The notes under the pieces: generated by a model
Told to the model about the DNA's origin: nothing
Seen by the model: only the letters and a program-made list of their open reading frames with translations
Databases searched by the model: none
Shown: positions 10,447 through 27,955 of the stretch, piece by piece
Layout: the number at the start of each line of letters is the position of its first letter
How positions within the stretch are numbered: the stretch's first letter is position 1
Origin: a virus
Length of the DNA stretch: 28,479 bases
Virus record (IMG/VR): IMGVR_UViG_3300025120_000392
Location: 1-28,479 of that record
Direction: 5' to 3' (one strand)
Position numbers and translations under genes: made by a program

Positions 10447-10641
10447 CAACCTCCAACATCTAACTCCCATACACCCATCTTTCAATGTAACAAAGGCGCG
10501 TGCTTTTACTTTGGCTCTTTTTGCCCCAGACTCAATAGCATAAATAGTCTCGGCAGTTTTAAGTGTAGGTATAAAAAAACTATCCCCGACTTCCATAGCC
10601 TCAAAGGGAAACACCCATTCAGCCTCTCTATGCGTTATCAC
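10441..10641 (-). CDS. Small conserved-type phage protein, last gene of the replication cluster
   Basis: A 66-residue frame. Its pattern (FPFEAMEVGDSFFIP, then Lys/Arg-rich helix, then DGCMGVRCWRLL) matches a small protein I recognise from many phages near replication genes, with the layout F-x-F-x-x-M-x-VGDSF-x-x-P ... G-x-R-x-WR. Its function is unknown. The start at 10641 is GTG and overlaps the primase-helicase end by 14 bases. A second GTG at 10614 has a better GAGAGG binding site 8 bases upstream and would begin right at the conserved FPFEAM, so the true protein may be 57 residues. Its stop (10441-10443) overlaps the end of the giant plus-strand gene by 6 bases. Confidence 0.75.
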   Translation of the reverse strand: MITHREAEWVFPFEAMEVGDSFFIPTLKTAETIYAIESGAKRAKVKARAFVTLKDGCMGVRCWRLL

Positions 10642-13767: not shown

Positions 13768-13775
13768 AAGACCTC

Positions 13776-14477: not shown

Positions 14478-14479
14478 AT

Positions 14480-15298
14480 TTATTTCTCCTTTAAGTGTGA
14501 CCACTTTTTAACAATAGCATTAGCTTCTGTCTTGCGGTCGGTTTGCATAGTGTCTTCACTGCTAAAGCCAAAACTTTCAGCGTTAGGTAGTTTAGGCACT
14601 ACGTTTAATTGCACTGCGTTGAGTGCTTCTTTACTCTCCCCTAAATTCTTTAGTATCTCAACATATTCCGAGTCTACTGCTGAACTAGGAGAAAATAATA
14701 CTTTGGGGTATGCGACCATAGGGTCTAAATGAAGTTTGGTTATTAACCTACTTGCATTAACATTGTTGGTGGCGAGCATACTAACATATGCTTTCAATCC
14801 CCATTTACCAAATGATTCTTTTTGCCAACATGAGTTAGAGGGTACAACAAATTGAAATACCCCTGCCTCTACATCGTCTTTTATTACTACGGCTATTAGC
14901 CATGAAATCTTACATGAAGTCCCGTTACTAATAACACTGTTACGAACACTGTAAGGACACTGATTACAAGAACTAGATAAAGGTTTAGCTACCTCTGGAT
15001 CAGGAACTCTAGAATCACTAGACCAACAAGTCGGTTTAGTGTATTGAGTAGAATCAAAAGACGCAGGGTAATACATTCGACTAGGCGATTGTGCCATACG
15101 AACAATAACAACTTTAGCTTCATGTCCTTTCAAAGTTTTAATAGAGTTATCCATATGTTTATGAAACAACCCATCTTTAATCTTTAGTCTTTGATGCGTC
15201 GCATATCTCGCACCTGCAACAGATAAGGTATCTAAATCTAAAGAGTCAGTCGCTACTTCAGGATTACTATCTAAAATTTTATCTAATTCGTTTACCAT
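14480..15298 (-). CDS. Cys-rich phage protein sharing a C-terminal tail with the ssDNA-binding protein
   Basis: A 272-residue protein of a family I recognise from phage replication clusters but cannot name by function. Four cysteines (C91 in PTCWSSDS, C111 and C114 in SSSCNQCPYS, C129 in TSCK) look like a zinc site. It is followed by a beta-rich segment (ISWLIAVVIKDD ... FQFVVPSNS) and FGKWGLKAYVSML, which together suggest a nucleic-acid-binding fold. Residues about 260-268 (ANAIVKKWS) repeat the tail of the next gene product. It sits 3 bases after the gene at 15302-15721 and 2 bases before the ssDNA-binding gene. The ATG lacks a strong ribosome binding site, so it may rely on coupling. A second ssDNA-binding or replication-mediator role is plausible but not shown. 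Confidence 0.82.
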   Translation of the reverse strand: MVNELDKILDSNPEVATDSLDLDTLSVAGARYATHQRLKIKDGLFHKHMDNSIKTLKGHEAKVVIVRMAQSPSRMYYPASFDSTQYTKPTCWSSDSRVPDPEVAKPLSSSCNQCPYSVRNSVISNGTSCKISWLIAVVIKDDVEAGVFQFVVPSNSCWQKESFGKWGLKAYVSMLATNNVNASRLITKLHLDPMVAYPKVLFSPSSAVDSEYVEILKNLGESKEALNAVQLNVVPKLPNAESFGFSSEDTMQTDRKTEANAIVKKWSHLKEK

Positions 15299-15301
15299 GA
15301 T

Positions 15302-15721
15302 CTATGCTTTATTAGATGGCTTTTTAACTACAATACTATACTCACGCATAGAGTTAATTCCTGGGGGCAACCCGTCTTCGCCATGACTAACTAAATATTC
15401 TTTTAAGTTGCCGTTATGTAATCTTTGTTGTAACAGTTCCACCAAATTGTTTTCCATGATAAAGCTTTTTAGTCCGTCCCAATCACTACAAACAAAGTTC
15501 TCTCTTAATGTTTTAATGACAGTTCCTGAACTTGTCTTAATACTTTCGGCGTTCATGTTATTACACTCCTGCAACATAACTGCTTCTAGTTTTTTAAGTT
15601 CTTCTTTCAAGCCAACATCTTCAGCTTCAAACTTTCTTTTTAATGTATCTCTTTGATTACGAATGGCAATATAAGCACCAACATAATCTCCTAACTGAAT
15701 CTTATCTTCTACTTCACTCAT
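15302..15721 (-). CDS. Coiled-coil phage protein, Gp157-like layout, function unknown
   Basis: A 139-residue protein. The N-terminal half (about 8-60) is a charged helix (RDTLKRKFEAEDVGLKEELK) typical of a coiled coil. A compact part follows (SSGTVIKTLREN ... W-x-x-LKSFI ... LLQQRLHNGNLKEYL ... LPPGINSMREYSIVVKK). The layout, a helix and then GT-x-x-K ... P-x-G-[VI]-N, is common in small phage proteins near ssDNA-binding and helicase genes and recalls siphovirus Gp157-like proteins. I do not know its activity. Start and stop are translationally coupled: its ATG overlaps the stop of 15718-15969 as ATGA. Confidence 0.78.
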   Translation of the reverse strand: MSEVEDKIQLGDYVGAYIAIRNQRDTLKRKFEAEDVGLKEELKKLEAVMLQECNNMNAESIKTSSGTVIKTLRENFVCSDWDGLKSFIMENNLVELLQQRLHNGNLKEYLVSHGEDGLPPGINSMREYSIVVKKPSNKA

Positions 15722-15969
15722 TTTTTATTTCCTCTCATAAATGGTTTTAAAAGTTTTTCTACATCTTTCATTGACGCCATAGCATTCCTATGAACGCCTA
15801 CTAAGTTACTCGCAAAAACAGAAGGGCTGATTTCTCTTTGCTGCAAAATGCACACTACTATCGCAGTCAAGATTAAAAACGCTTGGTCTTCTACATCAAC
15901 GAGGTCCTCAATTCTTTCATTAACTAATTCAATTAATTCTTTTATTTCGTCTTCCGGAAAATCTTTCAT
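15718..15969 (-). CDS. Small helical phage protein, function unknown
   Basis: An 83-residue protein, mostly helical by composition: an acidic N-terminus (MKDFPEDEIKELIELVNERI), a hydrophobic middle (DQAFLILTAIVVCILQQ) and a basic C-terminus ending RGNKK. The hydrophobic part is about 14 residues long, interrupted by polar residues, and is more likely a buried helix than a membrane span. The ATG overlaps the helicase stop as ATGA, and its stop overlaps the next ATG in the same way, which is strong evidence that it is translated. No family is recognised. Confidence 0.72.
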   Translation of the reverse strand: MKDFPEDEIKELIELVNERIEDLVDVEDQAFLILTAIVVCILQQREISPSVFASNLVGVHRNAMASMKDVEKLLKPFMRGNKK

Positions 15970-17528
15970 GATATAACGTCCCTATATAAATCAACTAAAC
16001 TTGTATGAGCATCTACTTTTCCTTGTAGCATGGCATACATTTTTCTCTCTACTTCTGATCCCTGTAAATGAACTACAGTCATCTTATTCTTTTGTCCCAC
16101 TCTATCAATACGAGCAATACATTGTAGGTAAGCCTCAACTGAACTAACAGGCGACCAAAAAACAACTGTGTCTGCTTTAGTCAAAGTCACGCCGTGCGAA
16201 GCTGACTGAGGTTGAATAATAAGAACCCTAGGGTCATCAAAGTTTTGAAACCTATTAAATATATTACGGCGTTCGTTTGCACTTACATCACCATTAATAA
16301 TCTCACACCCATAACCTTGCTTTACTAAATGTCTATTAACCAATTCTATTGTATGTCTGAATGGGACAAATATTAGTATCTTTTCATTTGTTTCATCTAT
16401 TACTTCATTAAGTGCGGCGAGTCTTGGTTTAATATCAAACTCAATAACATCTTTTTTGTCGGTGTAAACGGCTCCACCTGAAATCTGTAGTAGCTTGGTC
16501 AAGCCACTTGCAGCGTTAACTGCACTAATCATTTCACCCGCAGCTTCGATAAGCATTTGATCTTTTAAGGTTTTATAATACTTAACTACTTGAGGAGTTA
16601 GTGGCACATCTCTAGTCTGATACATGACATCAGGTAAATCTAAACAATCATTTTTAGCAAATCGTATCGCAGGTTGTAATGCTTTAAATACTAAATCTTT
16701 TGCAGCCGATCTTGGCACCCACTTAAATCTTGTTACTTGGGTCATAACTTTATCTCGCCACGCCCCACTAAATTTTGGGACTCTCTCTGGCGAGACTAGC
16801 TTGGCTAGTCCATATGCGTCTACAGGCGATTGAGCTGCGGGAGTTCCTGTCATAAGCCATAACCTAGTTTCAGGTTTAATTATCTTTGCTAACGTCTTCC
16901 ACCTCGCCGTGCTTGGTGATTTGTATGCGTTAGCTTCGTCTATAATAATCAGATCAAAATTATTTTTTGCTATAGTCTCTCTAACAATACCTACGCCATC
17001 ATAATTAATACATATAAAATCAAAGGGCTCTTCAATAATTAATTCTCTTTTCTTTTGTGTTCCATGAGCAACCCCTACTGTTCGGTGCATAACCGTATTC
17101 TGAACATCAGCTTCCCATGCAGAATACATAATAGACAACGGGCAAATAATTAACACTCGTTTAATTAAACCGAGCTTCATAAGATAATCCGCCGCCCATA
17201 AAGCAGAAGAAGTTTTACCTGTCCCCGCTTCGTTGAAACAGAATCCTCTTTTATTTATAGATAAAAATTCAGATGTAGTTTTCTGATGATCGAACGGCTC
17301 AAAGACCCCGGGCCAATCATAGTCTCTAGTAATGGGAGACGGTAAAGGTTTACGAAAAGAAACTAATTGGTTTAACCTTGTCATCTCTTGCACCCCCCAA
17401 TATATCACTACTTCGGATAGGTTGCCTTTTTGTCCGACAACTTCAAACTTCTCAATCTCTTTCTCAATATGTGGAACCATATAATCAGGCACCGTCATTT
17501 TTACTGCTGTGTTATCTATAACTTGCAT
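15966..17528 (-). CDS. SNF2-family DEAD/H-box helicase (superfamily 2)
   Basis: A 520-residue protein with the full superfamily 2 motif set. F-x-P-x-HQ near 78-82 is the Q-like motif. Walker A is NEAGTGKT (99-106), motif II is IIIDEAN (194-200) and motif III is TGTP (227-230). ILIFVPFRHTI (384-394) starts the second RecA domain. Motif V is SHGVTLTKAD (444-453) and motif VI is QCIARIDRVGQ (469-479). These match SNF2/Rad54-like ATPases, which translocate on duplex DNA. In phages such proteins replace or assist the fork helicase, or remodel recombination intermediates. It is the first gene after a 68-base spacer that carries a good promoter, so it likely heads a sub-operon running to 10441. Its exact substrate is not decided by sequence. 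Confidence 0.93.
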   Translation of the reverse strand: MQVIDNTAVKMTVPDYMVPHIEKEIEKFEVVGQKGNLSEVVIYWGVQEMTRLNQLVSFRKPLPSPITRDYDWPGVFEPFDHQKTTSEFLSINKRGFCFNEAGTGKTSSALWAADYLMKLGLIKRVLIICPLSIMYSAWEADVQNTVMHRTVGVAHGTQKKRELIIEEPFDFICINYDGVGIVRETIAKNNFDLIIIDEANAYKSPSTARWKTLAKIIKPETRLWLMTGTPAAQSPVDAYGLAKLVSPERVPKFSGAWRDKVMTQVTRFKWVPRSAAKDLVFKALQPAIRFAKNDCLDLPDVMYQTRDVPLTPQVVKYYKTLKDQMLIEAAGEMISAVNAASGLTKLLQISGGAVYTDKKDVIEFDIKPRLAALNEVIDETNEKILIFVPFRHTIELVNRHLVKQGYGCEIINGDVSANERRNIFNRFQNFDDPRVLIIQPQSASHGVTLTKADTVVFWSPVSSVEAYLQCIARIDRVGQKNKMTVVHLQGSEVERKMYAMLQGKVDAHTSLVDLYRDVIS

Positions 17529-17555
17529 ACACCGTTCTCTCTATTGTGGAATATT

Positions 17556-17583
17556 AGTGTAACATATCCCAAACATGAGTCAA
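17556..17583 (-). promoter_or_regulatory. Putative sigma70-type promoter for the helicase-to-primase sub-operon
   Basis: On the minus strand TTGACT (17578-17583) and TACACT (17556-17561) are separated by 16 bases, matching 5 of 6 and 4 of 6 consensus positions. They lie in the only spacer of notable length in the 10441-24080 cluster, about 28 bases upstream of the helicase ATG. No other promoter of this quality is visible between 10441 and 24080, though the overlapping genes could hide weak ones. Confidence 0.55.
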
Positions 17584-17596
17584 GTGCTGGTTGACA

Positions 17597-18268
17597 TTAA
17601 GTTCTTTGAAATTCGCAGGTTTTTACAGAACACCATCCGCAAAGGGGTGTAGGGTTAGGGCGCCAATTACCGTACTCGTAAGCTAGGTCTAGGCGTGTGA
17701 GGATTTTCTCAAAAGTTTTCCAATGCTTTTCTTTGTCTTCTCTTTTGTATTGAGCAGTTATAAAACTATTTTTAGCAACAAACATTAGCCCACCTTTAAC
17801 TGTATTTACTTCAGGGAAGTGTTCAAAAATCATGAGAGCCATAAGTTTTAACTGTTTAGTATCAGGGTATTTATTACTGCCTGTTTTATAATCAACTACA
17901 AACGCATAGTCCCCGTCAATAATAACAAGATCGGCTATGCCGCGGCAGTATCTATCTTCACTATCAAAGGCACAAGGTTTTCTATCGTGTGTCAAAGCCA
18001 TCTCTAATTCACAATGTTTAGTTCCCGGAATAGCTATTAGCTCATCTACCATACTTTTAAACTGTTGGTAGTTCTTTGCTAACTCAACACCGTCTCTTAC
18101 ATAATTCTCTAATGCAGTATGAACCTCTTTACCATAAATCATGGCTTCGTTTTCTTTAACTGTATAATTTTTAAGCACCCGTATTTCATGATATTGCTTT
18201 GGGCAATTTTGATATTGTTTAAGTGAAGAAAAACTCCATGTGTAATTGTCTTTAGTTTGTTCTTCCAC
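17597..18268 (-). CDS. PD-(D/E)XK nuclease, RecB/Cas4-like, with probable Fe-S cluster
   Basis: A 223-residue protein. It shows WSFSSLKQYQNCPKQY at the start, YGKEVHTALE (H50), GIADLVIIDGDYAFVVDYKTG with D113, D126 and K128 as the nuclease core, and QLKLMAL (Q139) as the following helix: the order of the PD-(D/E)XK RecB/Cas4 type. C22 together with C210, C213 and C218 forms the one-plus-three cysteine pattern that holds a 4Fe-4S cluster in Cas4 and AddB. The likely role is a DNA exonuclease for recombination or for degrading host or intermediate DNA. The start is GTG at 18268, with AAGGA 6 bases upstream, and overlaps the preceding stop as TAGTG. Prediction of a nuclease is firm; the cluster is inferred from cysteine spacing. 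Confidence 0.88.
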   Translation of the reverse strand: MEEQTKDNYTWSFSSLKQYQNCPKQYHEIRVLKNYTVKENEAMIYGKEVHTALENYVRDGVELAKNYQQFKSMVDELIAIPGTKHCELEMALTHDRKPCAFDSEDRYCRGIADLVIIDGDYAFVVDYKTGSNKYPDTKQLKLMALMIFEHFPEVNTVKGGLMFVAKNSFITAQYKREDKEKHWKTFEKILTRLDLAYEYGNWRPNPTPLCGWCSVKTCEFQRT

Positions 18269-18408
18269 TATCTTCCTTGCCCACGATATTTTTTGAAGTC
18301 TTTCTTAAAGTATTTGTTCATAGTAGAAGTCTTGGCTACCCTACCACCTTGACTTGTTCGTTTATGTATGGGTTCTCTTTCTTGTTCCGTTTGTTTTATT
18401 TTAGCCAT
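18268..18408 (-). CDS. Very small basic phage protein (46 aa)
   Basis: The frame extends back to 18462, but I place the start at the ATG at 18408, giving MAKIKQTEQEREP and then a Lys/Arg-rich tail ending MNKYFKKDFKKYRGQGR. GAGG precedes this ATG by 9 bases and it overlaps the HNH stop by 8 bases. The pattern (short, ending SxMNKxxKxxxKKYRGQGR) is one I recognise as a widespread tiny phage protein. The very high basic content suggests nucleic-acid contact, but no function is known to me. The stop overlaps the GTG of the nuclease gene by 1 base. Confidence 0.7.
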   Translation of the reverse strand: MAKIKQTEQEREPIHKRTSQGGRVAKTSTMNKYFKKDFKKYRGQGR

Positions 18409-18916
18409 TCCATCTTTCCTCATTAAAATTTTGTTTTGCTCTATTCCATGTTGCGGGAACAATCTGTAAGTTATCTAGTGAGTGTGTACCCCCTTTAGAT
18501 AAAGGCCTAATGTGGTCTACTTCCCACTTAATATCTGTTATTTCTGAAAGCTTTGAGGACATAGTATATACCCATCTCGCCATCTGTTTATCTTCGCTAG
18601 AAATAATACAATTGTTTTTTTGTTTATTTGCTTGATATGTCTTTGCATATGCATTTAGTTTACCTCTATTAGCTTCAATATAAGATTTCATATACGTCTT
18701 TCTTTTTTCTTTGTTGACTTTTCTATAAGCCATCTTTTTTGCTAATATCTTTTCTCTATTAGCTTTATAGTGCATTTTACTATACGCAATCGTCCTTTCT
18801 TTATTAGCTTCACGATAAGCTTCTATTTTTTCTATATTAGCTCGGTAATAAGCTTTATACTTTTCTTTGTTTCCCTCGTACCAAGCTTTTCTATCTTCAG
18901 GATTCTTATGCGGCAT
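18401..18916 (-). CDS. HNH endonuclease with N-terminal tandem repeats
   Basis: A 171-residue protein starting at the ATG at 18916 (AAGGA 6 bases upstream, TGATG overlap with the previous gene). The C-terminal 45 residues are an HNH domain: WEVDHIRPLSKGGTHSLDNL with D134 and H135, H145 and N149, then N158 in ATWNRAKQN. Before it, residues 14-100 contain seven copies of a basic unit with core A-N-[KR]-E-K. Its Asn falls at 16, 27, 38, 53, 68, 83 and 97, a spacing of 11 that turns into 15. Such lysine-rich repeats may form a long helix that grips DNA. It may be a homing-type or a packaging-related nuclease; position within the replication cluster favours a mobile or accessory gene. No cysteine pair typical of the zinc-bound HNH type is seen. 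Confidence 0.87.
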   Translation of the reverse strand: MPHKNPEDRKAWYEGNKEKYKAYYRANIEKIEAYREANKERTIAYSKMHYKANREKILAKKMAYRKVNKEKRKTYMKSYIEANRGKLNAYAKTYQANKQKNNCIISSEDKQMARWVYTMSSKLSEITDIKWEVDHIRPLSKGGTHSLDNLQIVPATWNRAKQNFNEERWNG

Positions 18917-19185
18917 CAATTGTCCTTAGTAAAAGTTTTAGGGTCTACTCCGACGAAGCCACAGGATTGTGGTTCGGTTATTTCAAATCCAAATACATCA
19001 GGGTGGTCGCCAGGAAGATTGCTATACTCCGTTAATAAACAACTTGCCGCCATATATTCACTACAGTTCTCATGATAGTATTCTATTGCCGTCTGGCAGT
19101 CATTAAAATATCCAACGAATTCTAGATCGTCGTAGTCGCCACTCAGACTTACTGTCAAAATGAATGCACCTTCTGTTAAAGTCAT
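18916..19185 (-). CDS. Small hypothetical protein
   Basis: An 89-residue acidic protein beginning MTLTEGAFILTVSLSGDYDD. It contains a beta-like stretch, DDLEFVGYFNDCQTAIEYYHENC, and three further cysteines or polar turns. I recognise no family. GGAG lies 9-10 bases before the ATG, the stop overlaps the HNH ATG as TGATG, and it sits 11 bases after the oxygenase-like gene, so it is almost certainly translated as part of the operon. The early hydrophobic part is short and is not a clear signal peptide. Confidence 0.68.
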   Translation of the reverse strand: MTLTEGAFILTVSLSGDYDDLEFVGYFNDCQTAIEYYHENCSEYMAASCLLTEYSNLPGDHPDVFGFEITEPQSCGFVGVDPKTFTKDN

Positions 19186-19196
19186 TTCTTTTTCTC

Positions 19197-19856
19197 CTAA
19201 AAAAATGCTTCTAGTAACCCATCTCGTCTGACTATATGTCCTTGCAATGTAATTCTGTATTCATTAGGGATATATTTTTTCATACCTGCTATCCTATGAA
19301 TTATTTGTCCATTATGTATCACTAGGTCTTTCTCATTATACGCTAAGTGTTGCTGTTGATGAAACTCGTCTATGTAGTCCATGCCACCGCCAGATTTAGG
19401 TAGCTTAACCGCCAGAGTAAAAGCATAGCTATCTATATCATCTAGCCCTAGTGTAGTATGAGGATAGTCTTGATGCCAATTGCCTGTTATCTTTAAAAAC
19501 TTTTTGTCACTTGGAAAGATATGAAATCCCGGAACTCTTAATTGGGTCGTTAGATAAACATCTTCTGCAAATACACTATTCAATACTACCCCTATTTGTG
19601 TATATAAATCAGCAAATGTGTGAACCATTATCTCATTTTCAACAGATAGATTTTTATAATATTCTTTTGTTTTTCCGTCAAGATACGCCCCTCTACCTAA
19701 AGTATAAAACGGGTAGTCTTTTGACCTACTAATCCATTTGTCTTTCGCAGACAAAACTTTATTAGTTATCGCTTCTCTATCAATATCCATAGGTATAACA
19801 GTAAAAGGTGATGTTTTTCTTACCACTTCTTCTTCCCACTCAATATCTAAATCCAT
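19197..19856 (-). CDS. 2-oxoglutarate/Fe(II) dioxygenase-like protein
   Basis: A 219-residue protein from the ATG at 19856 (GGAG 7 bases upstream, TAATG overlap with the polymerase stop). The pattern of a 2OG-Fe(II) oxygenase is visible: NWHQDYPH with H128 and D130 (the HxD pair), a glycine-rich turn LPKSGGGMDYID, then VIHNGQIIHRIAG (H181, H187) and about 14 residues later EYRITLQGHIVR with R201, the usual 2OG-binding arginine. Enzymes of this fold hydroxylate proteins, nucleobases or small molecules. The assignment rests on this spacing alone, and the substrate cannot be read. Its place directly behind the polymerase gene makes modification of nucleic acid or a replication protein an attractive but unproven idea. 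Confidence 0.68.
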   Translation of the reverse strand: MDLDIEWEEEVVRKTSPFTVIPMDIDREAITNKVLSAKDKWISRSKDYPFYTLGRGAYLDGKTKEYYKNLSVENEIMVHTFADLYTQIGVVLNSVFAEDVYLTTQLRVPGFHIFPSDKKFLKITGNWHQDYPHTTLGLDDIDSYAFTLAVKLPKSGGGMDYIDEFHQQQHLAYNEKDLVIHNGQIIHRIAGMKKYIPNEYRITLQGHIVRRDGLLEAFF

Positions 19857-21724
19857 TAACAATCTCCGTAGTTATCAGCCACGCCTGATTCACAAGCAAT
19901 AGGCAATCCGTCTGCCCATTCAGGTGCAATAGACATGATGTTCTCAATATACTTTGTTCCAGACTCTACTTCTTCATCAGGTAGCACACAAACAACTGCG
20001 TCATGAACTGTCAATGCGGGTCTATACTTCTCATTAATCTGTATCATCTGTTCCCCAATCACAATCCTAGCTAATGCTTGAACTACATTCTCGGTTACAC
20101 TCCCACCCCAAATAGTGACTTGCATGTTATATCTTTTTTTATATAGATAGCGTTTATTAGATTCAGAAGTGTCTACATGAAGATCGGGATAGCGTATATA
20201 AAGTCCGTTCGGAAACTTGATTCCCTCTTTGTCTACGAGTAAAGTGTTGTGCTTGTCTAAATAGTATGGTTCTTTCCCCTCGGGCCAATAAACTAAATCT
20301 TGCAATGCGTTCTCACAAGTTCGCCAGAAGTCCGTAACCTTATTGTTCATCTCTCTATACACCTGAACTAATCTTTTACATTCGGCTTCATCGAACTCTA
20401 CACCCGCACCTAGCTTCAAAACATTCTGAAGTTTAGCAGCACCCGTTCCATATCCTAATCCTAGAATACAAGTCTTACCGACTGCTCGTTCTACCTTGTT
20501 TCGCTTGTCTATCTTCCTGTTATAAACCTTACTTGCAAACTCACAATAAACATCTCTACCCTCGGCATACCATTGTGTGACATCTTCTTGTCCTGATAGC
20601 CATACTAAAATCCTAGCTTCAATCTGAGATGAGTCGCAGTTAATTACCTTATGACCATATGGTGCGACCACCGCTTGTTTCAATGTTTTCTTCCGTGCGT
20701 CTCTCGACGGTAAGTTCTGAAAGTTAACTTTGTCTGACCCTGACCAACGCCCCGTATGCGCCCCGTAGTATTTCAACGGGATAGGTAGCCTACCTTTGTT
20801 TCTAGCACCCACGCCTATGAATCGTTCTATCCTAGTTTTTTCTATCGTAGACTTCGTGCCTAACCGAACGGCACACAACTCTTGTATAAAAGAGTCCTCA
20901 TGCCCCTGCAAGTCTATAAATCCTTGGTCAGTCTTTGCTAATGCAAAGGTTTCTTTTTCGGTCGTAGGGGATATCTTCATAGGAACAACTGCACCCAACT
21001 CGGTTATCAATTCAGCAAACTGTTTGTTACTTGCTAACTTCTTCCTAACAGATTCTACATCTTCACACTCAAGTCTAGCCATGAGTCCTTGTAACAACTC
21101 CTGGGTTTCTATCTTAAGTTCTTCAAGTCTTGTAATAAGTAGCCCGTCGTTAACTTCTAGTAGGGGTTCTGTAAACATTCTAATAGTTATATCTATTAGT
21201 TTTAATTCGTCGTGGGGAAAGTCTTTGGATAAAATCTGAAATAGTTTATAGGTTAACTCGGTGTCATTGATACAGTATTGCCCATATCTATGTAGTTCGT
21301 GAGGTTGAAAGTCCTCTAACCTTTTACCTTTAGCGTCAAGGACTTCTGTTCCTTTTTCACCTAGATTGTAATGCTTGGATAAGTATGCTAACGATCCCCC
21401 CGCGTTTGTTCCATGTATTGCACGAGCCATACACAAAGTGTCAAGGTATATCTTTGGGGTTATGTTATATATAAAACTTAAGATAGCCCCGTCAAAAAGC
21501 ATATTGTGGCAGACAAGTAATGAATTATCCCAATCTATTTTATCAAGTGCTGCCTTGAGTTCTTCATGTGAACCTGAATACCATTTAGTCTTGCCGTCAT
21601 CTATCTTGACCGCAAACCCAACTACTTGAAACTTTGGGTCTCTAATGTATTCTTCTGTTGTTAAATTTGATAAGCTGAAACCTACATCATAAAATGTTTC
21701 AAAGTCAATCGTTATTAGATTCAA
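19856..21724 (-). CDS. polA: Family A DNA polymerase with 3'-5' exonuclease domain
   Basis: A 622-residue replicative polymerase. The exonuclease motifs are DFET (D7, E9), CHNMLFDGA (N74, D78) and Y150-C-I-N-D154. Polymerase motif A is INCDSSQIEAR (D364), motif B is R413-AVG-K417-TCI-L421-GLG-Y425 and motif C is VHDAVV (H574, D575). GAHTGRWSGSDKVNFQNLP (321-339) is the conserved template/primer region. There is no 5'-3' exonuclease domain, as usual for phage enzymes. The residue equivalent to Phe762 of E. coli Pol I is Leu421. The start must be TTG at 21724: an in-frame TAA lies 21 bases upstream, and the first internal ATG comes after the exonuclease motifs. AAAGGG precedes it. It overlaps the upstream zinc-ribbon gene by 20 bases and the oxygenase-like gene as TAATG. 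Confidence 0.95.
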   Translation of the reverse strand: MNLITIDFETFYDVGFSLSNLTTEEYIRDPKFQVVGFAVKIDDGKTKWYSGSHEELKAALDKIDWDNSLLVCHNMLFDGAILSFIYNITPKIYLDTLCMARAIHGTNAGGSLAYLSKHYNLGEKGTEVLDAKGKRLEDFQPHELHRYGQYCINDTELTYKLFQILSKDFPHDELKLIDITIRMFTEPLLEVNDGLLITRLEELKIETQELLQGLMARLECEDVESVRKKLASNKQFAELITELGAVVPMKISPTTEKETFALAKTDQGFIDLQGHEDSFIQELCAVRLGTKSTIEKTRIERFIGVGARNKGRLPIPLKYYGAHTGRWSGSDKVNFQNLPSRDARKKTLKQAVVAPYGHKVINCDSSQIEARILVWLSGQEDVTQWYAEGRDVYCEFASKVYNRKIDKRNKVERAVGKTCILGLGYGTGAAKLQNVLKLGAGVEFDEAECKRLVQVYREMNNKVTDFWRTCENALQDLVYWPEGKEPYYLDKHNTLLVDKEGIKFPNGLYIRYPDLHVDTSESNKRYLYKKRYNMQVTIWGGSVTENVVQALARIVIGEQMIQINEKYRPALTVHDAVVCVLPDEEVESGTKYIENIMSIAPEWADGLPIACESGVADNYGDC

Positions 21725-21887
21725 GTTTTCCCTTTCTCTCTTTTATACAAAATCCTTTTAAGTTCATCACACCCATGTCTGATTCAATAGAGCAATACCA
21801 CTTGCCCCCGTGATTAATCTTTGCGTCTTTACCACACTCGCAACAAACTGCGGGACCAACTCGGTTATCTTCTTTTATAATAGTCAT
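21705..21887 (-). CDS. Tiny zinc-ribbon protein
   Basis: A 60-residue protein with CCECGKDAKINHGGKWYCSI: C15 or C16 with C18, then C32, and C47 in GFCIKER, enough to hold a zinc. Its ATG overlaps the stop of the next upstream gene as ATGA, and its own stop lies 20 bases inside the polymerase frame, so expression of the two is linked. The WYCSIE segment resembles WCSIEC of the neighbouring gene, so the two may be diverged copies. Function unknown; a nucleic-acid or protein adaptor role is typical for such ribbons. Confidence 0.72.
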   Translation of the reverse strand: MTIIKEDNRVGPAVCCECGKDAKINHGGKWYCSIESDMGVMNLKGFCIKERKGKLESNND

Positions 21888-22078
21888 AATTTATTCGCAT
21901 ATTTTGTATGTTCATCACGACATTCTATACTACACCACCTACGATTGTCTTTTACTTTTGCTTCACACCATATACAACGCCCTGTATTATTATCAGGCAC
22001 TTCAGTATCTACATTAGATAATGTTGCTTCGAGCATAAGCCGAGTTTCTTTATCGGCATTATCTAAATCATCACTCAT
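21884..22078 (-). CDS. Tiny zinc-finger protein
   Basis: The frame runs from 22099, but I choose the ATG at 22078 because it overlaps the upstream stop as ATGA, giving 64 residues (MSDDLDNADKETRLMLEATL ...). The C-terminal half has C35-x-x-C38 and C49-x-x-x-C53 in GRCIWCEAK ... RRWCSIECRDEH, a compact zinc site known from many small phage proteins. The N-terminal half is an acidic helix. Its stop overlaps the next ATG. Function unknown. Confidence 0.75.
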   Translation of the reverse strand: MSDDLDNADKETRLMLEATLSNVDTEVPDNNTGRCIWCEAKVKDNRRWCSIECRDEHTKYANKL

Positions 22079-22293
22079 ACCATATGTCCCTTTGTCCATG
22101 GACTTTTTCTTATTCTTTGTTTAGCAGTTATAGGTTTAGGTAGGACAACTCCCCACCTTTCTAATACTGAAATAGCTACTCCCGAGTAAACTGCTACTTT
22201 GTTTCTTGTAGTTTCAGGTTTTCTATTCATATAATCTTCTGCTCTTTCTATAATCTTTTTCTTTTCTTCTTCAGTGTAAGCCACTTTTGGCAT
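22075..22293 (-). CDS. Small phage protein with possible helix-turn-helix
   Basis: A 72-residue protein. An acidic-basic helix (TEEEKKKIIERAEDYMNRK) is followed by ETTRNKVAVYSGVAISVLERWG (about 28-48), which has the helix-turn-helix look: a small first helix, a Gly turn, and a second helix with V-L-x-x-W. A basic C-terminal tail follows (KQRIRKSPWTKGH). The ATG is preceded by two AAGGA-like sites. It could be a minor DNA-binding regulator; this is weaker than the clear HTH at 13465-13767. Confidence 0.62.
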   Translation of the reverse strand: MPKVAYTEEEKKKIIERAEDYMNRKPETTRNKVAVYSGVAISVLERWGVVLPKPITAKQRIRKSPWTKGHMV

Positions 22294-22308
22294 TCCTTTT
22301 CCTTTCGT

Positions 22309-22521
22309 TTAAAATAAACATTCTTCACAATTATCAAACGCTAATTCGTATTGTGAGATTTGTTGTGTTGGTTTCGGTTGTTTTAATCTTACTATCCTAC
22401 CTTGAAAATGATTTTCAGTAAACCACTTTGCTTCACTTTTACTCCACCTATACTTCCTAATAATCTCGCCCTCATCATCTAGTAGGGCGTGAGTAAAGTC
22501 ACTCAACGCCTTTATCCTCAT
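22309..22521 (-). CDS. Small conserved-type phage protein
   Basis: A 70-residue protein. HALLDDEGEIIRKYRWSKSEAKWFTEN matches a motif I know from tiny phage proteins (a short strand, then D-x-x-G-x-[IV]-x-RK-[FY]-x-x-K-x-EA). The C-terminus has NCEECLF. The ATG at 22521 overlaps DUF3310 by 23 bases and lacks a close binding site. A TTG at 22506 lies just after GAGGATAAAGG and would shorten the protein by 5 residues and the overlap to 8 bases. Function unknown. Confidence 0.68.
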   Translation of the reverse strand: MRIKALSDFTHALLDDEGEIIRKYRWSKSEAKWFTENHFQGRIVRLKQPKPTQQISQYELAFDNCEECLF

Positions 22522-22732
22522 ATGATTTTATCTGCCTTTGGGCATACCATATCATTTTCTTTAGGTCTTGAATTGGGTTTCCCTTATGTTTACATCTCAT
22601 CAGGTATTTGCCACATTGCCACAACAAAGGGTCTTGCGGAAAAAACTCTTCCAATACATCTATGACTTCAAACTTTGTCGTAGTGTAGTGTTTGGGTCTG
22701 TCGACGGGATCGTCTTTTAAATTTGCTCTCAT
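22499..22732 (-). CDS. DUF3310 protein
   Basis: A 77-residue protein with the DUF3310 pattern: DPVDRPKHYTTTKFEVIDVL at the start, then LLWQCGKYLMRCKHKGNPIQDLKKMIWYAQRQI. The family is widespread in phages next to nucleotide and replication genes. Its biochemical role is not settled. GAGGG stands 8 bases before the ATG, and it lies 4 bases after the VRR-NUC gene. Confidence 0.87.
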   Translation of the reverse strand: MRANLKDDPVDRPKHYTTTKFEVIDVLEEFFPQDPLLWQCGKYLMRCKHKGNPIQDLKKMIWYAQRQIKSYEDKGVE

Positions 22733-22736
22733 GTAT

Positions 22737-23042
22737 TTACCCTCTTAATAAATTTATGTCTTGCGTTTTAAAAAATAATTCTAATGCGTCTAGGTCGGTT
22801 TCGTCAATGACCATTGAATATCCCCCCGCCTTTCTTATCTCGGATAGGTTTCTATTTTGAAGTGCCGTTGGTTTATTACCATTAGCTTTACACTCAATAC
22901 CTAAAAACATTCCTTTATAACAGGCGATAATATCAGGCACACCCGATGAACCATATCCCCCTGTTGACGCGTAAAAGTGGTAGCAGTCGTTCGCTTTTAA
23001 TATCTTCACCACTTTGTTTTTAACTTTCTTTTCAGGTGTCAT
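22737..23042 (-). CDS. VRR-NUC nuclease
   Basis: A 101-residue stand-alone VRR-NUC domain. It has E4 in the first helix, SGVPDIIAC (D37), FLGIECKANGNKP (E50-x-K52) and ALQ (Q62), the complete catalytic order of this PD-(D/E)XK branch. Phage members cut branched or single-stranded DNA structures such as Holliday junctions. Its ATG overlaps the upstream stop as ATGA, with GAGGGGG 6-7 bases before the ATG. It is likely to act in recombination or in resolving replication products with the SNF2 helicase and the PD-(D/E)XK protein of this cluster. Confidence 0.92.
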   Translation of the reverse strand: MTPEKKVKNKVVKILKANDCYHFYASTGGYGSSGVPDIIACYKGMFLGIECKANGNKPTALQNRNLSEIRKAGGYSMVIDETDLDALELFFKTQDINLLRG

Positions 23043-23302
23043 AAATACCCCCTCGATATAACAGGGATAATACTTAACTTATTTCCCTCGGAAGTCCACA
23101 ACGCACCCGCGTCATTACCCTCGTCGTCCATCATAGGAACAATCCAATGCCCGTCAGTGAATTCTATAACGATATTAGCTTTAGTCCACCCTAGGTCGTC
23201 TACTTCTTGGGCAGTCATATATCTAATATGTTTAACAGTTTTACCCACTAAAAAGTTACTTACTTTGCCCGTCCAATTTTCTACTAATCCCTCAGTCTTC
23301 AC
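23039..23302 (-). CDS. Small conserved-type phage protein
   Basis: An 87-residue beta-rich protein. LVGKTVKHIRYMTAQEVDDLGW, then VIEFTDGHWIVPMMDDEGND-x-GAL, then IIPVI. This pattern (RY-[ML]-x-x-x-E-x-x-x-LGW ... DG-x-x-[LI]-x-P-x-x-DDEGND-G) is a small phage family I recognise but whose role is not known to me. The start is GTG at 23302, supported by a near-perfect AGGAGG 5 bases upstream, and overlaps the previous gene by 11 bases. Confidence 0.78.
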   Translation of the reverse strand: MKTEGLVENWTGKVSNFLVGKTVKHIRYMTAQEVDDLGWTKANIVIEFTDGHWIVPMMDDEGNDAGALWTSEGNKLSIIPVISRGYL

Positions 23303-23588
23303 AATTACCTCCTATACAAAATTTACTATTAGATATAATCTCGTCTTCGAGTTCTTTAAACGCGTCGTCTTTCATAATCTTTTTTCGTTCTTCACTTAAC
23401 CTTTCAACAAGCGGATTACTGCTCTCGGTTACCTCTATCTGAATCAATAGACCTCGATCTCGAGCATGGTCTGCTATGACTGATTTTACAAAGTCTACAG
23501 GTTCAATGCCCTCCCAATTTGATACCTTTTCATACTTCTCGTCATCAAGTTTTACATCAATGATAACGCTAAACCTTTTATACCCCAT
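23292..23588 (-). CDS. Small hypothetical phage protein
   Basis: I take the ATG at 23588 (GGAG 7 bases upstream) over the GTG at 23594, which would sit almost on the binding site. The 98-residue protein begins MGYKRFSVIIDVKLDDEK. It has a strand, a helix (DFVKSVIADHARDRG) and a second strand (LLIQIEVTE), followed by a charged helix and a C-terminus with two cysteines (FCIGGNC). No family is recognised. Both ends overlap the neighbouring genes by 11 bases. Confidence 0.7.
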   Translation of the reverse strand: MGYKRFSVIIDVKLDDEKYEKVSNWEGIEPVDFVKSVIADHARDRGLLIQIEVTESSNPLVERLSEERKKIMKDDAFKELEDEIISNSKFCIGGNCED

Positions 23589-23766
23589 TTTCACTCTCCT
23601 CTAATTCTTTAAGTTTCCTATCAAGTTCCACGTCAGTATAATCTTTCAACCCTGTGAACCCATTTAACAATACCCACTCGCACCACCCGTCTTGAACCTC
23701 TGTTGACATACTTAGTTCTTCAAATTCAAGCTCTGCAATCTTTTGTATCTTTTCTTCTCTACTCAT
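23578..23766 (-). CDS. Small acidic phage protein
   Basis: A 62-residue protein: MSREEKIQKIAELEFEELSM, then WCEWVLLNGFTGLKDYTDVELDRKLKELEE. The GF-x-GL-x-x-Y-[TS]-x-x-EL segment is shared by many small phage early proteins of unknown role. GGGGAG lies 7 bases before the ATG. The preceding gene's TAG ends immediately before the ATG. Confidence 0.75.
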   Translation of the reverse strand: MSREEKIQKIAELEFEELSMSTEVQDGWCEWVLLNGFTGLKDYTDVELDRKLKELEESENGV

Positions 23767-23958
23767 CTAAGCTCTCCCCTTTTTATTATGGTCTCGATAG
23801 ATATAATCATCACGAGTTATATCAGGGTCTGATTCTAATTCAGAAATCCACTCGTCGACTGTATCTGCTACATTATTAGGACATTCGGATAGATTAACTA
23901 CTTGGCCGTCATTGGTATACCCAACAATTTCCCACGCTATAATTTTTTCTGTCACCAT
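23767..23958 (-). CDS. Small hypothetical protein
   Basis: A 63-residue protein starting at the ATG at 23958 (GGAGG 10 bases upstream), which overlaps the stop of the small membrane-protein gene as TAATG. The longer frame back to 24024 would run through that gene and is rejected. The sequence MVTEKIIAWEIVGYTNDGQ, then an acidic helix (TVDEWISELESDPDITRDD), has no family I recognise. The first 25 residues look like a small beta-hairpin. Confidence 0.7.
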   Translation of the reverse strand: MVTEKIIAWEIVGYTNDGQVVNLSECPNNVADTVDEWISELESDPDITRDDYIYRDHNKKGRA

Positions 23959-24080
23959 TATATTAATACCTCCCTTGTTAAAAATCCAAGTGCGAACCCA
24001 AGCAACAACCCTAGTAAATACCAATTCCGTTTTTTGAGTCTTACTTCAATAGTTTCATAACTTCTGTTTCTATAACTCAT
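23958..24080 (-). CDS. Small single-pass membrane protein (40 aa)
   Basis: A 40-residue gene. The ATG (24078-24080) has GAGAGG 7 bases upstream, and its TAA overlaps the next ATG as TAATG. The N-terminal half is polar and basic (MSYRNRSYETIEVRLKKR). Residues 20-34 (WYLLGLLLGFALGFL) form one membrane span, and a short tail follows (TREVLI). The basic side before the span predicts an inside N-terminus. It is the first gene after the repeat-rich region and its promoter. Function unknown; small phage membrane proteins can be holin-like, superinfection-exclusion or host-takeover factors. Confidence 0.75.
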   Translation of the reverse strand: MSYRNRSYETIEVRLKKRNWYLLGLLLGFALGFLTREVLI

Positions 24081-24119: not shown

Positions 24120-24148
24120 ACACTACACCCTGTTTTCAATTGTGTCAA
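24120..24148 (-). promoter_or_regulatory. Putative promoter for the replication cluster
   Basis: On the minus strand TTGACA (24143-24148), a perfect -35 hexamer, is followed after 17 bases by TAGTGT (24120-24125), which matches only half of the -10 consensus. It sits about 40 bases upstream of the first gene of the cluster (ATG at 24080). Six tandem repeats lie just upstream. The weak -10 suggests it may need an activator bound to them. Confidence 0.5.
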
Positions 24149-24162
24149 ATATTGTATTACAA

Positions 24163-24172
24163 GTCGATCGAC
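24163..24172. promoter_or_regulatory. 10-bp palindrome, candidate operator
   Basis: GTCGATCGAC is a perfect palindrome. It lies between the -35 box (24143-24148) and the first 12-base repeat (24178), a position suited to a repressor or activator site. A related GTCGAC occurs at 24458-24463. The binding protein is unknown; the HTH protein at 13465-13767 is a candidate. Confidence 0.4.
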
Positions 24173-24177
24173 GGATT

Positions 24178-24254
24178 GGTTTCCCTTTAGGTTTCCATTT
24201 AGGTTTCCATTTAGGTTTCCATTTATCTTGGTTTCCATTTAGGTTTCCACTTTA
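24178..24254. repeat. Tandem 12-base repeats (iteron-like), six units
   Basis: GGTTTCCATTTA repeats at 24178 (with C for A at position 8), 24190, 24202 and 24214. After a 4-base TCTT break it repeats at 24230, and at 24242 (13 bases, one extra C). Three copies are adjacent and exact. Period 12 is close to one helical turn, so proteins would bind on nearly the same face. It is non-coding in all frames. Confidence 0.9.
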
Positions 24255-24344: not shown

Positions 24345-24381
24345 GGTCAAATAAGGTCAAACAAGGTCATATCAAGGTCAA
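24345..24381. repeat. Tandem GGTCA repeats at one-turn spacing, four units
   Basis: GGTCA begins at 24345, 24355, 24365 and 24376, so the spacing is 10, 10 and 11 bases. The units read GGTCAAATAA, GGTCAAACAA, GGTCATATCAA and GGTCAACGGC. Its minus-strand form, TTGACC, is a different motif from the 12-base family, so two different proteins or two modes of binding are likely. Confidence 0.8.
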
Positions 24382-24483: not shown

Positions 24484-24505
24484 CGTGGTGTTGTGGCTTA
24501 TGTAT

Positions 24506-24628
24506 TTATTTTGTGGACTGTATCAATACCCATGCAACATACACAAGTATTGCACCGCCCAAGGCGTAGAACAACACGCCCGTGAACAGTAGAATTAAAA
24601 CGAATATGAATACTATAAAGGCAATCAA
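24506..24628 (-). CDS. Small two-span membrane protein with TTG start (40 aa)
   Basis: The frame reads IAFIVFIFVLILLFTGVLFY and then ALGGAILVYVAWVLIQSTK, almost wholly hydrophobic: one long or two short membrane spans around a Gly-Gly turn. The start is TTG at 24628. An in-frame TGA (24632-24634) lies just upstream, so no longer start exists. AGGGGGG ends 8 bases before it, and the TTG overlaps the peptidase TGA as TTGA, the counterpart of the ATGA overlaps in this genome. The ATG in another frame (from about 24635) gives a poorer protein and is not preferred. Translation from TTG is inferred; a holin-like or inhibitor role cannot be told. Confidence 0.55.
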   Translation of the reverse strand: MIAFIVFIFVLILLFTGVLFYALGGAILVYVAWVLIQSTK

Positions 24629-25704
24629 TAGTCATACCCCCCTGTATCTCGTATGGCGATAACATCTTCTGCCATGAACTTCACAAGGTCAGCTATCTCG
24701 GTCGGCGTATAGTCTTTGATAGCTTTCTCGACTTCTGCGGTCGACATATAGGCGAACTCTTCATAGTCGTATATGGCGGTATTACCCCCCCGATAATCTT
24801 CATAATCCCAATCATCAGCTAACCCCCAACCACTTACGCCACTGCGATAAGAGTGTTTAGGTTCAGGTTTACGCGTGGCGGATATAGGTGCGGTCGCCCA
24901 ATTAACACTCACAAGTTTATCCCGTAGCTTAACTAGGAAGTTAAGGTCTTGAGTTTCGCGGTGCGAATGTTGTGCCATATATCCCACGCCAAGATTGGTG
25001 CATTCGGGTATGAGATGAGTAAATTCAGCAGAATCCGTATAGACACCTTTAGGGGATATTTTGAATCCCATGCCGAGTATCTTTGCAAACTCATTGCCAA
25101 ACTCATTCGAGCAACATTGTGATGAGTGTTGAGTAGTAATAACTTCATCACAACCCATGCGGTCTAAACTTATCATGTGAGTAAAGGTCTTGAAATAATC
25201 TTCCTGTTCCTCTGCCAAACATGATGAGCCAATACAACCTTGCTCTTCACCTCGGAAAAATATATAAGTGCCAAATACATTAGCTCTTATCATCTCCAAC
25301 ATAAGCCATACGCCCGACCCGTCATCTGCACCGAGACAATCCTGTTGTGTATCAACGAACGCCGTGCCGATTGAATCAATATAAACATCTTGAAGTATTC
25401 GTTCAGGTTCGGTTCTATGAACTGTATCGATATGACTTGCCCAACATATATTATTGTCAGACTTTTGGTTCGCGTTGTCATACTTGTATGCCATTATCTC
25501 ACCGCGTTCAGACTTGATAGGCGTAAAGTCTTTCATGTATCTATCGATAAACGCTTGTTCGCCTTTGCTCTCATGTTCTCGGCGGTATGAATAGATAGTG
25601 CATATATCTATAAATTCAGGATTGGTATTGTCATCACTAACAATATCCCCTTTATTCTCAATCTTTACATCTGTTACCTTTGTATCAAAAATATCGTAAC
25701 TCAT
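24625..25704 (-). CDS. M28-like zinc metallopeptidase
   Basis: The 359-residue protein starts at the ATG at 25704 (AGGAG 7 bases upstream). The longer frame back to 25971 overlaps the 746-aa gene and is rejected. The metal-ligand order of M28-type co-catalytic zinc peptidases is visible: WASHIDTVH (H91, D93), LGADDGSGV (D127), FFRGEEQGCIGSS (E153, E154), SLDRMG (D181) and YMAQHSHRET (H246 or H248), with TDSAEF before the last. M20 and M42 are related alternatives, but the short distance from E154 to H246 leaves no room for the extra M20 domain. Residues about 275-345 form an acidic Tyr/Asp-rich tail. There is no signal peptide, so it should act in the host cytoplasm. Its substrate is unknown. 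Confidence 0.82.
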   Translation of the reverse strand: MSYDIFDTKVTDVKIENKGDIVSDDNTNPEFIDICTIYSYRREHESKGEQAFIDRYMKDFTPIKSERGEIMAYKYDNANQKSDNNICWASHIDTVHRTEPERILQDVYIDSIGTAFVDTQQDCLGADDGSGVWLMLEMIRANVFGTYIFFRGEEQGCIGSSCLAEEQEDYFKTFTHMISLDRMGCDEVITTQHSSQCCSNEFGNEFAKILGMGFKISPKGVYTDSAEFTHLIPECTNLGVGYMAQHSHRETQDLNFLVKLRDKLVSVNWATAPISATRKPEPKHSYRSGVSGWGLADDWDYEDYRGGNTAIYDYEEFAYMSTAEVEKAIKDYTPTEIADLVKFMAEDVIAIRDTGGYDY

Positions 25705-25714: not shown

Positions 25715-27955
25715 CTATGGTAAGTAAATAAAATCAGGGTTATCAATCTGGCAAGTAGTGCCGTCAGGTAAAGTCTTAACCCTTGTTTTGTGAACATGGG
25801 TAATTTTTCTAAATTCACCCCTAAATATATATTGGCTTTCATCTGTTGGTAATGTAACGAGAATATCGTCAGGTGTAACATAAGTATTAAATGTAACCTT
25901 AACAAAGTCAGTAGGTAGAATTTCTTTAACACCCAACATCTTGCAAACCTTGTTATATTCTTTTCCAACAAAAATCTTTGGTCGTTTAATTGAACATTCT
26001 AAATCCAAAAATACTTTGTAAGTTTTTTCAGTCATCACCCAACCAAGTTCAGTCGACATTAAATCATGCGACTTACTCCAATATTTCAATCCGTTAAATC
26101 TTGTTGAATACTTATTCGAGGTGTAATTGTAGTCATCATCATAATCAAGATAATTAGTGAATGGATCTTGTAACGAATCGAATCTTGGGTTCATAAATAA
26201 AGGTCTAACATATCCCGCTACATTCATATATAAATCGAATCGTTTATCATCTAATCCTGAATCTATTGCTACATAGTTTTTATCTTTATACGAATCAACA
26301 ATCTTAAATACATCAGACGAATTTCTATGGCGGTCTTCAGGAAAACTTCTGCCCTCGCATATAGGCAATCCATTTTCGTCACGCGAAAATTCATTATGAT
26401 AGTTTATTGTATTAATTTGGGGAGTTATAACCTCTCTAGCTACATCTTCAAAACATGACAAGCATAGTCTTTCTTGGTCAAGAGTGTGAGCATCATCTTC
26501 GTGTATTGATTCGTCACAATTTTCGCAATAAGTATAATTGTCATCTTCTTCATCTTCATCACTGTCTGAATATGACCGCCCGTTAGTATTTTCAAGATAA
26601 AAGTCAGTTTCATAATCGGATTCAATGTGTAAATAGTCTCGGTCGTTTATGGTTTTCTCAACCGCATAAACCCACTTATCGCCCAATTCATCATGGCTCT
26701 GCCCGTCAATATATGGCACTGAATAACTGTCATATTCTGATAACCATTTGCCGTCAAGATAAACGCCGTTTAGATTCACGCGGTCGGTATATCCGTCTGC
26801 TGACAATTTTTGTTTCAGAAAATTACCTAGCTTGGATTCACTCGCGTGGGGATATAACCTGATGTAACCTTTATGTTCATCATCACGAACAATGCTACGC
26901 CCGTGAATATATCCTTGCTCATCTTTTAAGACTGCGAGTTTCAAAACAGATTTTGGATTCGCGTAAACTTTGACGGCCCGTTTATTAGTCATACATGAGT
27001 GAGAACGCTCGTATCGTTCGCTCTGATTATCCTCATGATAAGCACTAAACCATTTGTCCTGTTGGTTATCTACTGATTCCTGATTGTTCTCGCACTTGCC
27101 GTCAATATAATCTAGCGATAAGTCATTAAATCCAGCGTGTAAAGTCAAAAAATTATCCGCGAGTTGTTTAATCTGTTTCTCGTTCAGTCCTAAAAAATCT
27201 CTGAACCTCGCGAGGTATTTTCCAAAGGTGGTCACAATCTCACGCCCTCGTTTCATGTCTGCTAAATCACGATAATATGCCACGCTACCCTCTTTGGTCA
27301 GACTTTGGTGTAAGAAAGTTAAATTATCCAAACGATTGATTTGAATTTGGTGAGTGTCATAATCATAATCAGTCCCTTGGCATAACTCTTGCCAACCCAA
27401 CATACGCCAATCTTGTTTTCTTCTTAAATCGATAACCTCGTTGTAGTCCGATATAGTCGGATATCCTATTTTTGCAAAGTTATTATATTTCCGTCTCATC
27501 TCAAGATTTTTAGTCTTTAAAACTGACAATCCATATATACCCGTAAATATCAATTTAGAGTAGGCGTTCGCAATATCAATCTGATAACTTAACATCATTG
27601 CAAATTTTGTTCCTGAATCCAAATTGCTCGACCTTGCATTTGCCTTAATAAAACTCAAGGCGTAGCTTAATTCTTTCCCTTGGTCGTGCCATACTTTATG
27701 TTCACTTCGATATATAACTCGGTTCTTATTGCCATATCTCTTTATATCCCCGTTCCAATTCTCACGAATATAATTAAGCATGGTGCTTTTATAATACGAT
27801 TGAGCCGTATAACTACCCGTCTCATAATGACTTAAAACGCCATGAGCCGTATTCGATAGTTTCATCAATCGGGTTTCCCCTTTGGATTCCTGTTGGTTTC
27901 CTATTTGGGTAATATTTTCTGATACTTCTGGTGCTATTGTTTCATATTCAGTCAT
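25715..27955 (-). CDS. 746-aa phage protein with SCM motif and zinc ribbon, function unknown
   Basis: The ATG at 27955 has AAGGA 6 bases upstream. Residues about 35-290 are helical with no known domain. Residues 318-345 carry SHSCMTNKRAVKVYANPKSV (S320-C321-M322), then HGRSIV, RLYPHASESKLGNFLKQKL and VPYIDG (413-418), a pattern I have seen in large phage and plasmid proteins of unknown function. An acidic run (462-473) leads into a zinc ribbon with C477, C480, C498 and C501 (YCENCDESI ... CLSCFEDV). The C-terminal 150 residues contain a repeated-looking beta segment ending NPDFIYLP. It sits 10 bases upstream of the peptidase gene. No catalytic site can be assigned. Confidence 0.82.
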   Translation of the reverse strand: MTEYETIAPEVSENITQIGNQQESKGETRLMKLSNTAHGVLSHYETGSYTAQSYYKSTMLNYIRENWNGDIKRYGNKNRVIYRSEHKVWHDQGKELSYALSFIKANARSSNLDSGTKFAMMLSYQIDIANAYSKLIFTGIYGLSVLKTKNLEMRRKYNNFAKIGYPTISDYNEVIDLRRKQDWRMLGWQELCQGTDYDYDTHQIQINRLDNLTFLHQSLTKEGSVAYYRDLADMKRGREIVTTFGKYLARFRDFLGLNEKQIKQLADNFLTLHAGFNDLSLDYIDGKCENNQESVDNQQDKWFSAYHEDNQSERYERSHSCMTNKRAVKVYANPKSVLKLAVLKDEQGYIHGRSIVRDDEHKGYIRLYPHASESKLGNFLKQKLSADGYTDRVNLNGVYLDGKWLSEYDSYSVPYIDGQSHDELGDKWVYAVEKTINDRDYLHIESDYETDFYLENTNGRSYSDSDEDEEDDNYTYCENCDESIHEDDAHTLDQERLCLSCFEDVAREVITPQINTINYHNEFSRDENGLPICEGRSFPEDRHRNSSDVFKIVDSYKDKNYVAIDSGLDDKRFDLYMNVAGYVRPLFMNPRFDSLQDPFTNYLDYDDDYNYTSNKYSTRFNGLKYWSKSHDLMSTELGWVMTEKTYKVFLDLECSIKRPKIFVGKEYNKVCKMLGVKEILPTDFVKVTFNTYVTPDDILVTLPTDESQYIFRGEFRKITHVHKTRVKTLPDGTTCQIDNPDFIYLP

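What the first reader, a model, noticed from the sequence alone, without database searches (positions are those of the whole stretch)
24178..24254. Six 12-base iteron-like repeats upstream of the replication-cluster promoter
GGTTTCCATTTA is repeated six times (three copies exact and adjacent) with near one-turn period, right next to an AT-rich segment and a promoter with a perfect -35 and poor -10. This is the classic make-up of an iteron origin or an activator array, in a phage whose replication genes start directly to its left. I know of no initiator in this phage class that would use it.
Basis: partly seen in the sequence, partly recalled or inferred. Interest (0 to 1): 0.65.

Follow-up and report, generated by a model that had tools for sequence, protein, structure and literature searches.

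The report
Repeat array before phage replication promoter
Six copies of a 12-base DNA word sit just in front of the switch that turns on a phage's DNA-replication genes; related phages carry different repeated words in the same place, so it is most likely a fast-changing protein-docking site that controls that switch, while a better candidate for the replication start lies a few thousand bases away.

Summary
In detail: six head-to-tail units (TAAATGGAAACC on the - strand) at 24178-24253, far beyond chance, 29 bp upstream of a TTGACA-17-TAGTGT promoter that reads into the replication cluster. Four close relatives have the same array with 4, 6, 6 and 10 units. GGAAACC is invariant in all 32 units, while copy number and linker vary. 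The array was not found in 84,980 bacterial/archaeal genomes. In other lineages the same spot (behind an M28-peptidase gene, before a TTGACA promoter) holds a different repeat: 3x32 bp, 4x GGGAGGGTGAGG, 5-6x AGAAACGGGG, 7x AATGTCACTTGG, 5x42 bp. Some relatives have the gene or promoter but no array. A better origin candidate lies 4.2-4.9 kb upstream, just outside the window, in every array-bearing lineage whose contig reaches it: 8-9-bp iterons, mostly in both orientations, beside an A+T block; its motifs are usually unrelated to the array unit. So I read the array as a lineage-specific operator controlling the replication-operon promoter (repression more likely than activation), not the origin. 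The binding protein is unidentified; nothing was tested experimentally. New variant of a known kind.

The parts
24178..24253 (-). Array of six 12-bp units, (T/A)AAA(T/G)GGAAACC on the - strand; 4-bp spacer at 24226-24229
   Evidence: orthologous arrays aligned
24143..24148 (-). -35 hexamer TTGACA of the replication-operon promoter, 29 bp from the last unit
   Evidence: conserved in L004/L006/L007/L012
24120..24125 (-). -10 hexamer TAGTGT (TAATGT in L006, L007, L012), 17-bp spacer
24163..24172 (.). Perfect 10-bp palindrome GTCGATCGAC between array and -35
   Evidence: one mismatch in L004
24254..24290 (.). AT-rich stretch next to the array, with degenerate AACCTAAA part-units
   Evidence: TRF and k-mer hits
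24345..24381 (.). Second short repeat, GGTCA with about 10-11-bp period; kept in L004 (2-3 copies) and L007, replaced in L006/L012
24438..24459 (.). Inverted repeat ACCATAGG/CCTATGGT inside a well conserved non-coding block (about 24385-24510)
23958..24080 (-). First gene of the operon, 40-aa membrane peptide; its ribosome-binding site GAGAGGAAAC (GGAAACCA in L006/L012) resembles the array core
   Evidence: read directly
10441..24080 (-). Downstream cluster: Hjc-like nuclease, DNA polymerase, exonuclease, helicase, ssDNA-binding protein, HTH protein, primase-helicase
24625..25692 (-). M28-family peptidase gene that precedes the intergenic region in every array-bearing lineage where that side is held
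27872..27901 (-). Mini-cluster of the core (2x GGAAACC plus GGAATCC) in the first codons of the 746-aa gene

Best explanation
The array is a lineage-specific operator for the promoter of the phage replication operon. A DNA-binding protein, most likely phage-encoded, binds the asymmetric GGAAACC units side by side as a head-to-tail oligomer and controls transcription from the TTGACA-17-TAGTGT promoter 29 bp downstream. I think holding the promoter down until, or after, the right stage is more likely than activating it. Shown: the array, its position, its conservation in close relatives, and its replacement by other repeats at the same spot elsewhere. Inferred: that a protein binds it, which protein, and the sign of regulation.
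For: Array kept in all four near relatives that cover the spot, with invariant core in 32/32 units while copy number is 4-10 and linkers vary. Position is fixed while sequence is replaced between lineages: L009/L010/L089, L044, L097-L104, L121, L128/L130, with the arrays ending shortly before a TTGACA. With at least 4 copies of an 8-mer within 350 bp as the criterion, 10 of 381 other segments qualify against 4 of 18 sequence clusters at this spot. Units are nearly exclusive to this site in 66-kb and 52-kb contigs and always in one orientation. Units or near-units recur at the ribosome-binding site of the first gene in L006/L012, L044 and L097/L098, and once inside the -35/-10 spacer in L098, where bound protein would block RNA polymerase. 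Distance from last unit to -35 is variable (about 11, 23, 25, 29, 38, 46, 60 bp), unlike direct-contact activators. The origin function has a better candidate elsewhere.
Against: No binding protein is identified. Lineages L016/L132 and Rhizobium phage RHph_TM3_14A keep a similar promoter without any array, so it is not essential to the promoter in general. Candidate regulators do not track the motif: a 72-aa candidate protein is only 58% identical in L006 although the unit is the same. The ribosome-binding-site resemblance may partly be chance, since such sites are purine-rich.
Confidence: 0.55

Rival explanations
1. The array is an iteron replication origin, or a second cis-acting replication element working with the other one (as P4 uses ori plus crr; recalled): an initiator such as the primase-helicase binds the units and melts the adjacent AT-rich DNA.
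For: Near one-turn direct repeats beside AT-rich DNA, in front of replication genes; an initiator-like primase-helicase is encoded. The ori-like region lies 4.2-4.9 kb away in the lineages checked, and in the window clade the two motifs share GGGAA (GGGAACA versus GGGAAACC).
Against: A more origin-like region exists and is also present where the array is absent. In most array-bearing lineages the two motifs are unrelated, e.g. AGAAGACAC versus AATGTCACTTGG, GTGTGACAA versus GTACATAAGCAT. Units have one orientation only. In the lineages of L121 and L130 the array lies about 18-19 kb from the DNA polymerase gene.
Confidence: 0.17
2. The array is a neutral minisatellite that arose by slippage of a short segment, without function.
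For: Adjacent units are often identical, copy number varies 4-10, and in L007 two unit types form blocks, as slippage produces. The whole intergenic region is only about as conserved as neighbouring genes.
Against: All variation among 32 units lies in the linker, none in the 7-bp core. Independent, sequence-unrelated arrays at the same spot in several lineages are not expected from random slippage.
Confidence: 0.13
3. The unit acts in RNA: a read-through transcript of the array, and ribosome-binding sites sharing the motif, are bound by an RNA-binding regulator, with the array as a decoy.
For: All units are in the sense strand, and the unit recurs at ribosome-binding sites in three lineages.
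Against: The array lies upstream of the -35, so the operon's own transcript lacks it. No such recurrence in L121 or L128. No unusually stable fold in the neighbouring non-coding stretch (z -0.99) and no Rfam match in the region.
Confidence: 0.06
4. A partition-type (centromere-like) or host-factor binding site.
For: 11-12-bp direct repeats in front of an operon promoter resemble parC or tubC layouts (recalled, not tested).
Against: No ParM-, ParA- or TubZ-like NTPase appeared in the proteins scanned. The array is absent from 84,980 bacterial/archaeal genomes.
Confidence: 0.04

Closest known systems
Iteron origins and autoregulated Rep promoters of plasmids
   Same: Short head-to-tail repeats near one helical turn, beside AT-rich DNA and next to the promoter of a replication operon
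   Different: No initiator shown to bind; the units do not recur at the more origin-like region; several array lineages use unrelated motifs at the two sites
Satellite phage P4 ori (alpha protein) and SaPI-type origins
   Same: A primase-helicase candidate initiator and an iteron-plus-A/T region; P4 alpha binds repeats at its origin through a winged helix (PMC4234260)
   Different: This description fits the region outside the window, not the 12-bp array; P4's ori and crr share iterons (recalled), while here the two motifs mostly differ
Multi-site phage operators (for example stoperators of cluster A mycobacteriophages; recalled)
   Same: Asymmetric sites of about 12-13 bp, repeated in one orientation relative to transcription, differing between lineages
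   Different: Here clustered at a single promoter rather than spread over the genome, and no repressor identified
Rhizobium phage RHph_TM3_14A (MN988472)
   Same: Nearest sequenced phage by DNA polymerase (34.8% identity); metallopeptidase gene, intergenic gap, TTGACA-17-TAATCT promoter, replication genes
   Different: No array in that gap

Membership tests
Iteron replication origin | Tandem short direct repeats near helical period | tested here: met
Iteron replication origin | Adjacent AT-rich unwinding region | tested here: met
   24254-24290, (weak criterion; window is 38.5% GC)
Iteron replication origin | Cognate initiator that binds the repeats | not testable with these tools
   a candidate primase-helicase exists; binding unknown
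Iteron replication origin | Replication starts there; no better origin candidate in the genome | tested here: inconclusive
   a better candidate region was found in relatives just beyond the window end; start site not mapped
P4-type ori/crr pair | Same iterons at both elements | tested here: not met
   motifs differ in L101, L121 and L128 lineages; only partial similarity in the window clade
Activator array (class I/II) | Sites at a fixed distance or helical phase from the -35 | tested here: not met
   distance 11 to about 60 bp between lineages; 29 versus 38 bp within the clade
Promoter operator array | Repeats tied in position to one promoter across relatives | tested here: met
Promoter operator array | Regulator binds and changes transcription | not testable with these tools
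   needs reporter and binding assays
parC/tubC partition site | Adjacent partition NTPase and adaptor genes | tested here: not met
   none among the proteins scanned; the genome is incomplete

The most novel reading that the evidence does not exclude
The arrays mark competition groups: each lineage of this phage family carries its own repressor-operator specificity on the replication operon, rapidly replaced by diversifying selection, so that a resident phage can shut off the replication operon of a co-infecting relative that shares its repeat.
Probability: 0.1. Interest if true: 0.75.

Novelty: new variant of a known kind. Interest (0 to 1): 0.45.

Why it matters
A regulatory site whose position is fixed but whose sequence is replaced between lineages points to a fast-evolving pair of protein and DNA site controlling phage replication in a large uncultivated group. 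The comparison also exposes a likely origin of replication for that group, which makes both questions testable in a sequenced relative or by cloning.

Tried and rejected
ORF 24077-24238 (-), which would translate the repeat as NGNLNGNL: rejected, because a 1-base difference in L006/L012 breaks the frame and the promoter lies inside it. Repeated ATG-GAA-ACC-TAA mini-ORFs: rejected, since the AAAGGG units lack the ATG. A stronger-than-coding conservation of the region: not found, about 95% like its neighbours. Host or prophage origin of the array: no match in bacterial genomes. DNA similarity to sequenced phages for 23500-26000: none. Literature searches found no description of this array, but only open-access papers were searched.

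Full report
What is there. The window is a 28,479-base virus record, here a fragment of a phage with polymerase, helicase, exonuclease, ssDNA-binding protein and primase-helicase genes, all on the - strand. At 24178-24253 there are six units of GGTTTCCATTTA (TAAATGGAAACC in the direction of the genes), spaced 12, 12, 12, 16, 12 bp on the + strand, four exact. The TRF score of 104 exceeds the best of 300 shuffled windows, 82. The promoter lies 29 bp downstream on the - strand: TTGACA, 17 bp, TAGTGT. It reads into a 40-aa membrane peptide gene (23958-24080) and then the replication cluster.

Close relatives. Four contigs whose polymerase is 97-98% identical cover the spot and have the array with 4 (L004), 6 (L006), 6 (L012) and 10 (L007) units. 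In all 32 units GGAAACC is invariant; only linker positions 1, 4 and 5 vary. A 4-bp spacer is kept in all. The promoter is kept, with TAATGT as -10 in three of them. The array patterns were not found in other viral contigs of the 2.9-million collection or in bacterial and archaeal genomes.

Other lineages. The intergenic region follows an M28-family peptidase gene. In L009/L010, whose polymerase is 80% identical, the same spot has 3 x 32 bp AGGAAACC...TTATGTCCACACCT, directly before TTGACA; L089 shows the beginning of the same array. In L044 there are 4 x GGGAGGGTGAGG before TTGACA-17-TAATTT. A search with a peptidase alignment added L097-L101 and L104 with 5-6 x AGAAACGGGG, L121 with 7 x AATGTCACTTGG and L128/L130 with five copies of a 42-bp unit; in those read in full (L097, L098, L121, L128) a TTGACA follows. 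L016/L132 and Rhizobium phage RHph_TM3_14A have a similar promoter but no array, and many more distant peptidase loci have neither. With a criterion of at least four copies of an 8-mer in 350 bp, 10 of 381 control segments qualify, against 4 of 18 sequence clusters at this spot. By a rough binomial estimate this is about one in a thousand; the control segments are mostly coding, so it is only indicative.

Where else the units occur. In the 66-kb and 52-kb contigs the unit occurs only at this site. In the AGAAACGGGG lineage one or two further copies exist; the one inspected lies at the ribosome-binding site of a downstream gene. Units or near-units also lie at the first gene's ribosome-binding site in L006/L012, L044 and L097/L098, and one lies between -35 and -10 in L098. 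In the window there is a mini-cluster in the first codons of the 746-aa gene; part of this may reflect conserved protein sequence.

The rival origin. Beyond the window's right end (window base 28479 corresponds to L012 628) lies a non-coding region with repeats of 8-9 bp period and a nearly pure A+T block. It is seen in L012, L010, L036, L041, L057, L061 and L062 and, in looser form, in RHph_TM3_14A. It is also seen in the array-bearing lineages of L097, L101, L121 and L128, 4.2-4.9 kb from the array where both could be placed. Repeats are mostly present in both orientations. L010 also has TTATCCACA, a DnaA-box consensus (consensus recalled). The motifs there (for example AGAAGACAC, GTGTGACAA, GTGAACAAC) differ from the array units of the same lineages. 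The 946-aa primase-helicase resembles the SCCmec Cch replicative helicase and is the natural initiator candidate for that region. Origin-binding primase-helicases are known from P4 (PMC4234260).

How it most likely works. I infer a head-to-tail oligomer of a DNA-binding protein on the units. Variable distance to the -35 (11 to about 60 bp) and units inside the spacer or over the ribosome-binding site favour blocking over contact activation. The strong -35 with a poor -10 is compatible with either. The binder is unknown. The 100-aa HTH protein beside the primase gene is present in nearly all relatives where that part is held, including those without an array, and so does not single itself out. 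The 72-aa protein diverges without a change of motif. The 746-aa protein with a weak DksA-like zinc finger precedes the peptidase in most of these loci, and also where no array exists.

Limits. Most relatives are fragments. No experiment bears on any of this. All functional statements are inference from position, repetition and comparison.

Noticed in passing
L012 1-75; L010 3144-3430; L036 2190-2570; L041 1420-1790; L057 570-930; L061 890-1210; L062 1-370; L169 6090-6310; L171 and L173; L093 1726-2496: Probable replication origin of this phage group: 8-9-bp iterons, mostly in both orientations, beside a nearly pure A+T block, upstream of the early operon; motif differs between lineages. Just outside the window's right end.
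   Followed up: partly
window 24625-27955 and most of L095-L141: A gene like the 746-aa protein (weak DksA-like zinc finger) is paired with the M28 peptidase gene across very different phages.
   Followed up: partly
window 23292-23588 and many loci: The C-terminal tail DEILNGKYCVGGNCED is shared by several otherwise different small proteins of these phages.
   Followed up: no
L121 6218-6790; L128 6187-6768: The operon behind the array encodes a sigma-70-like factor in these lineages (family match made for L121).
   Followed up: no
window 24345-24381: Second short repeat array (GGTCA, 10-11-bp period), replaced by other DNA in L006 and L012.
   Followed up: partly
window 13465-13767: HTH protein encoded next to the primase-helicase gene in nearly all relatives where that part is held.
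   Followed up: partly
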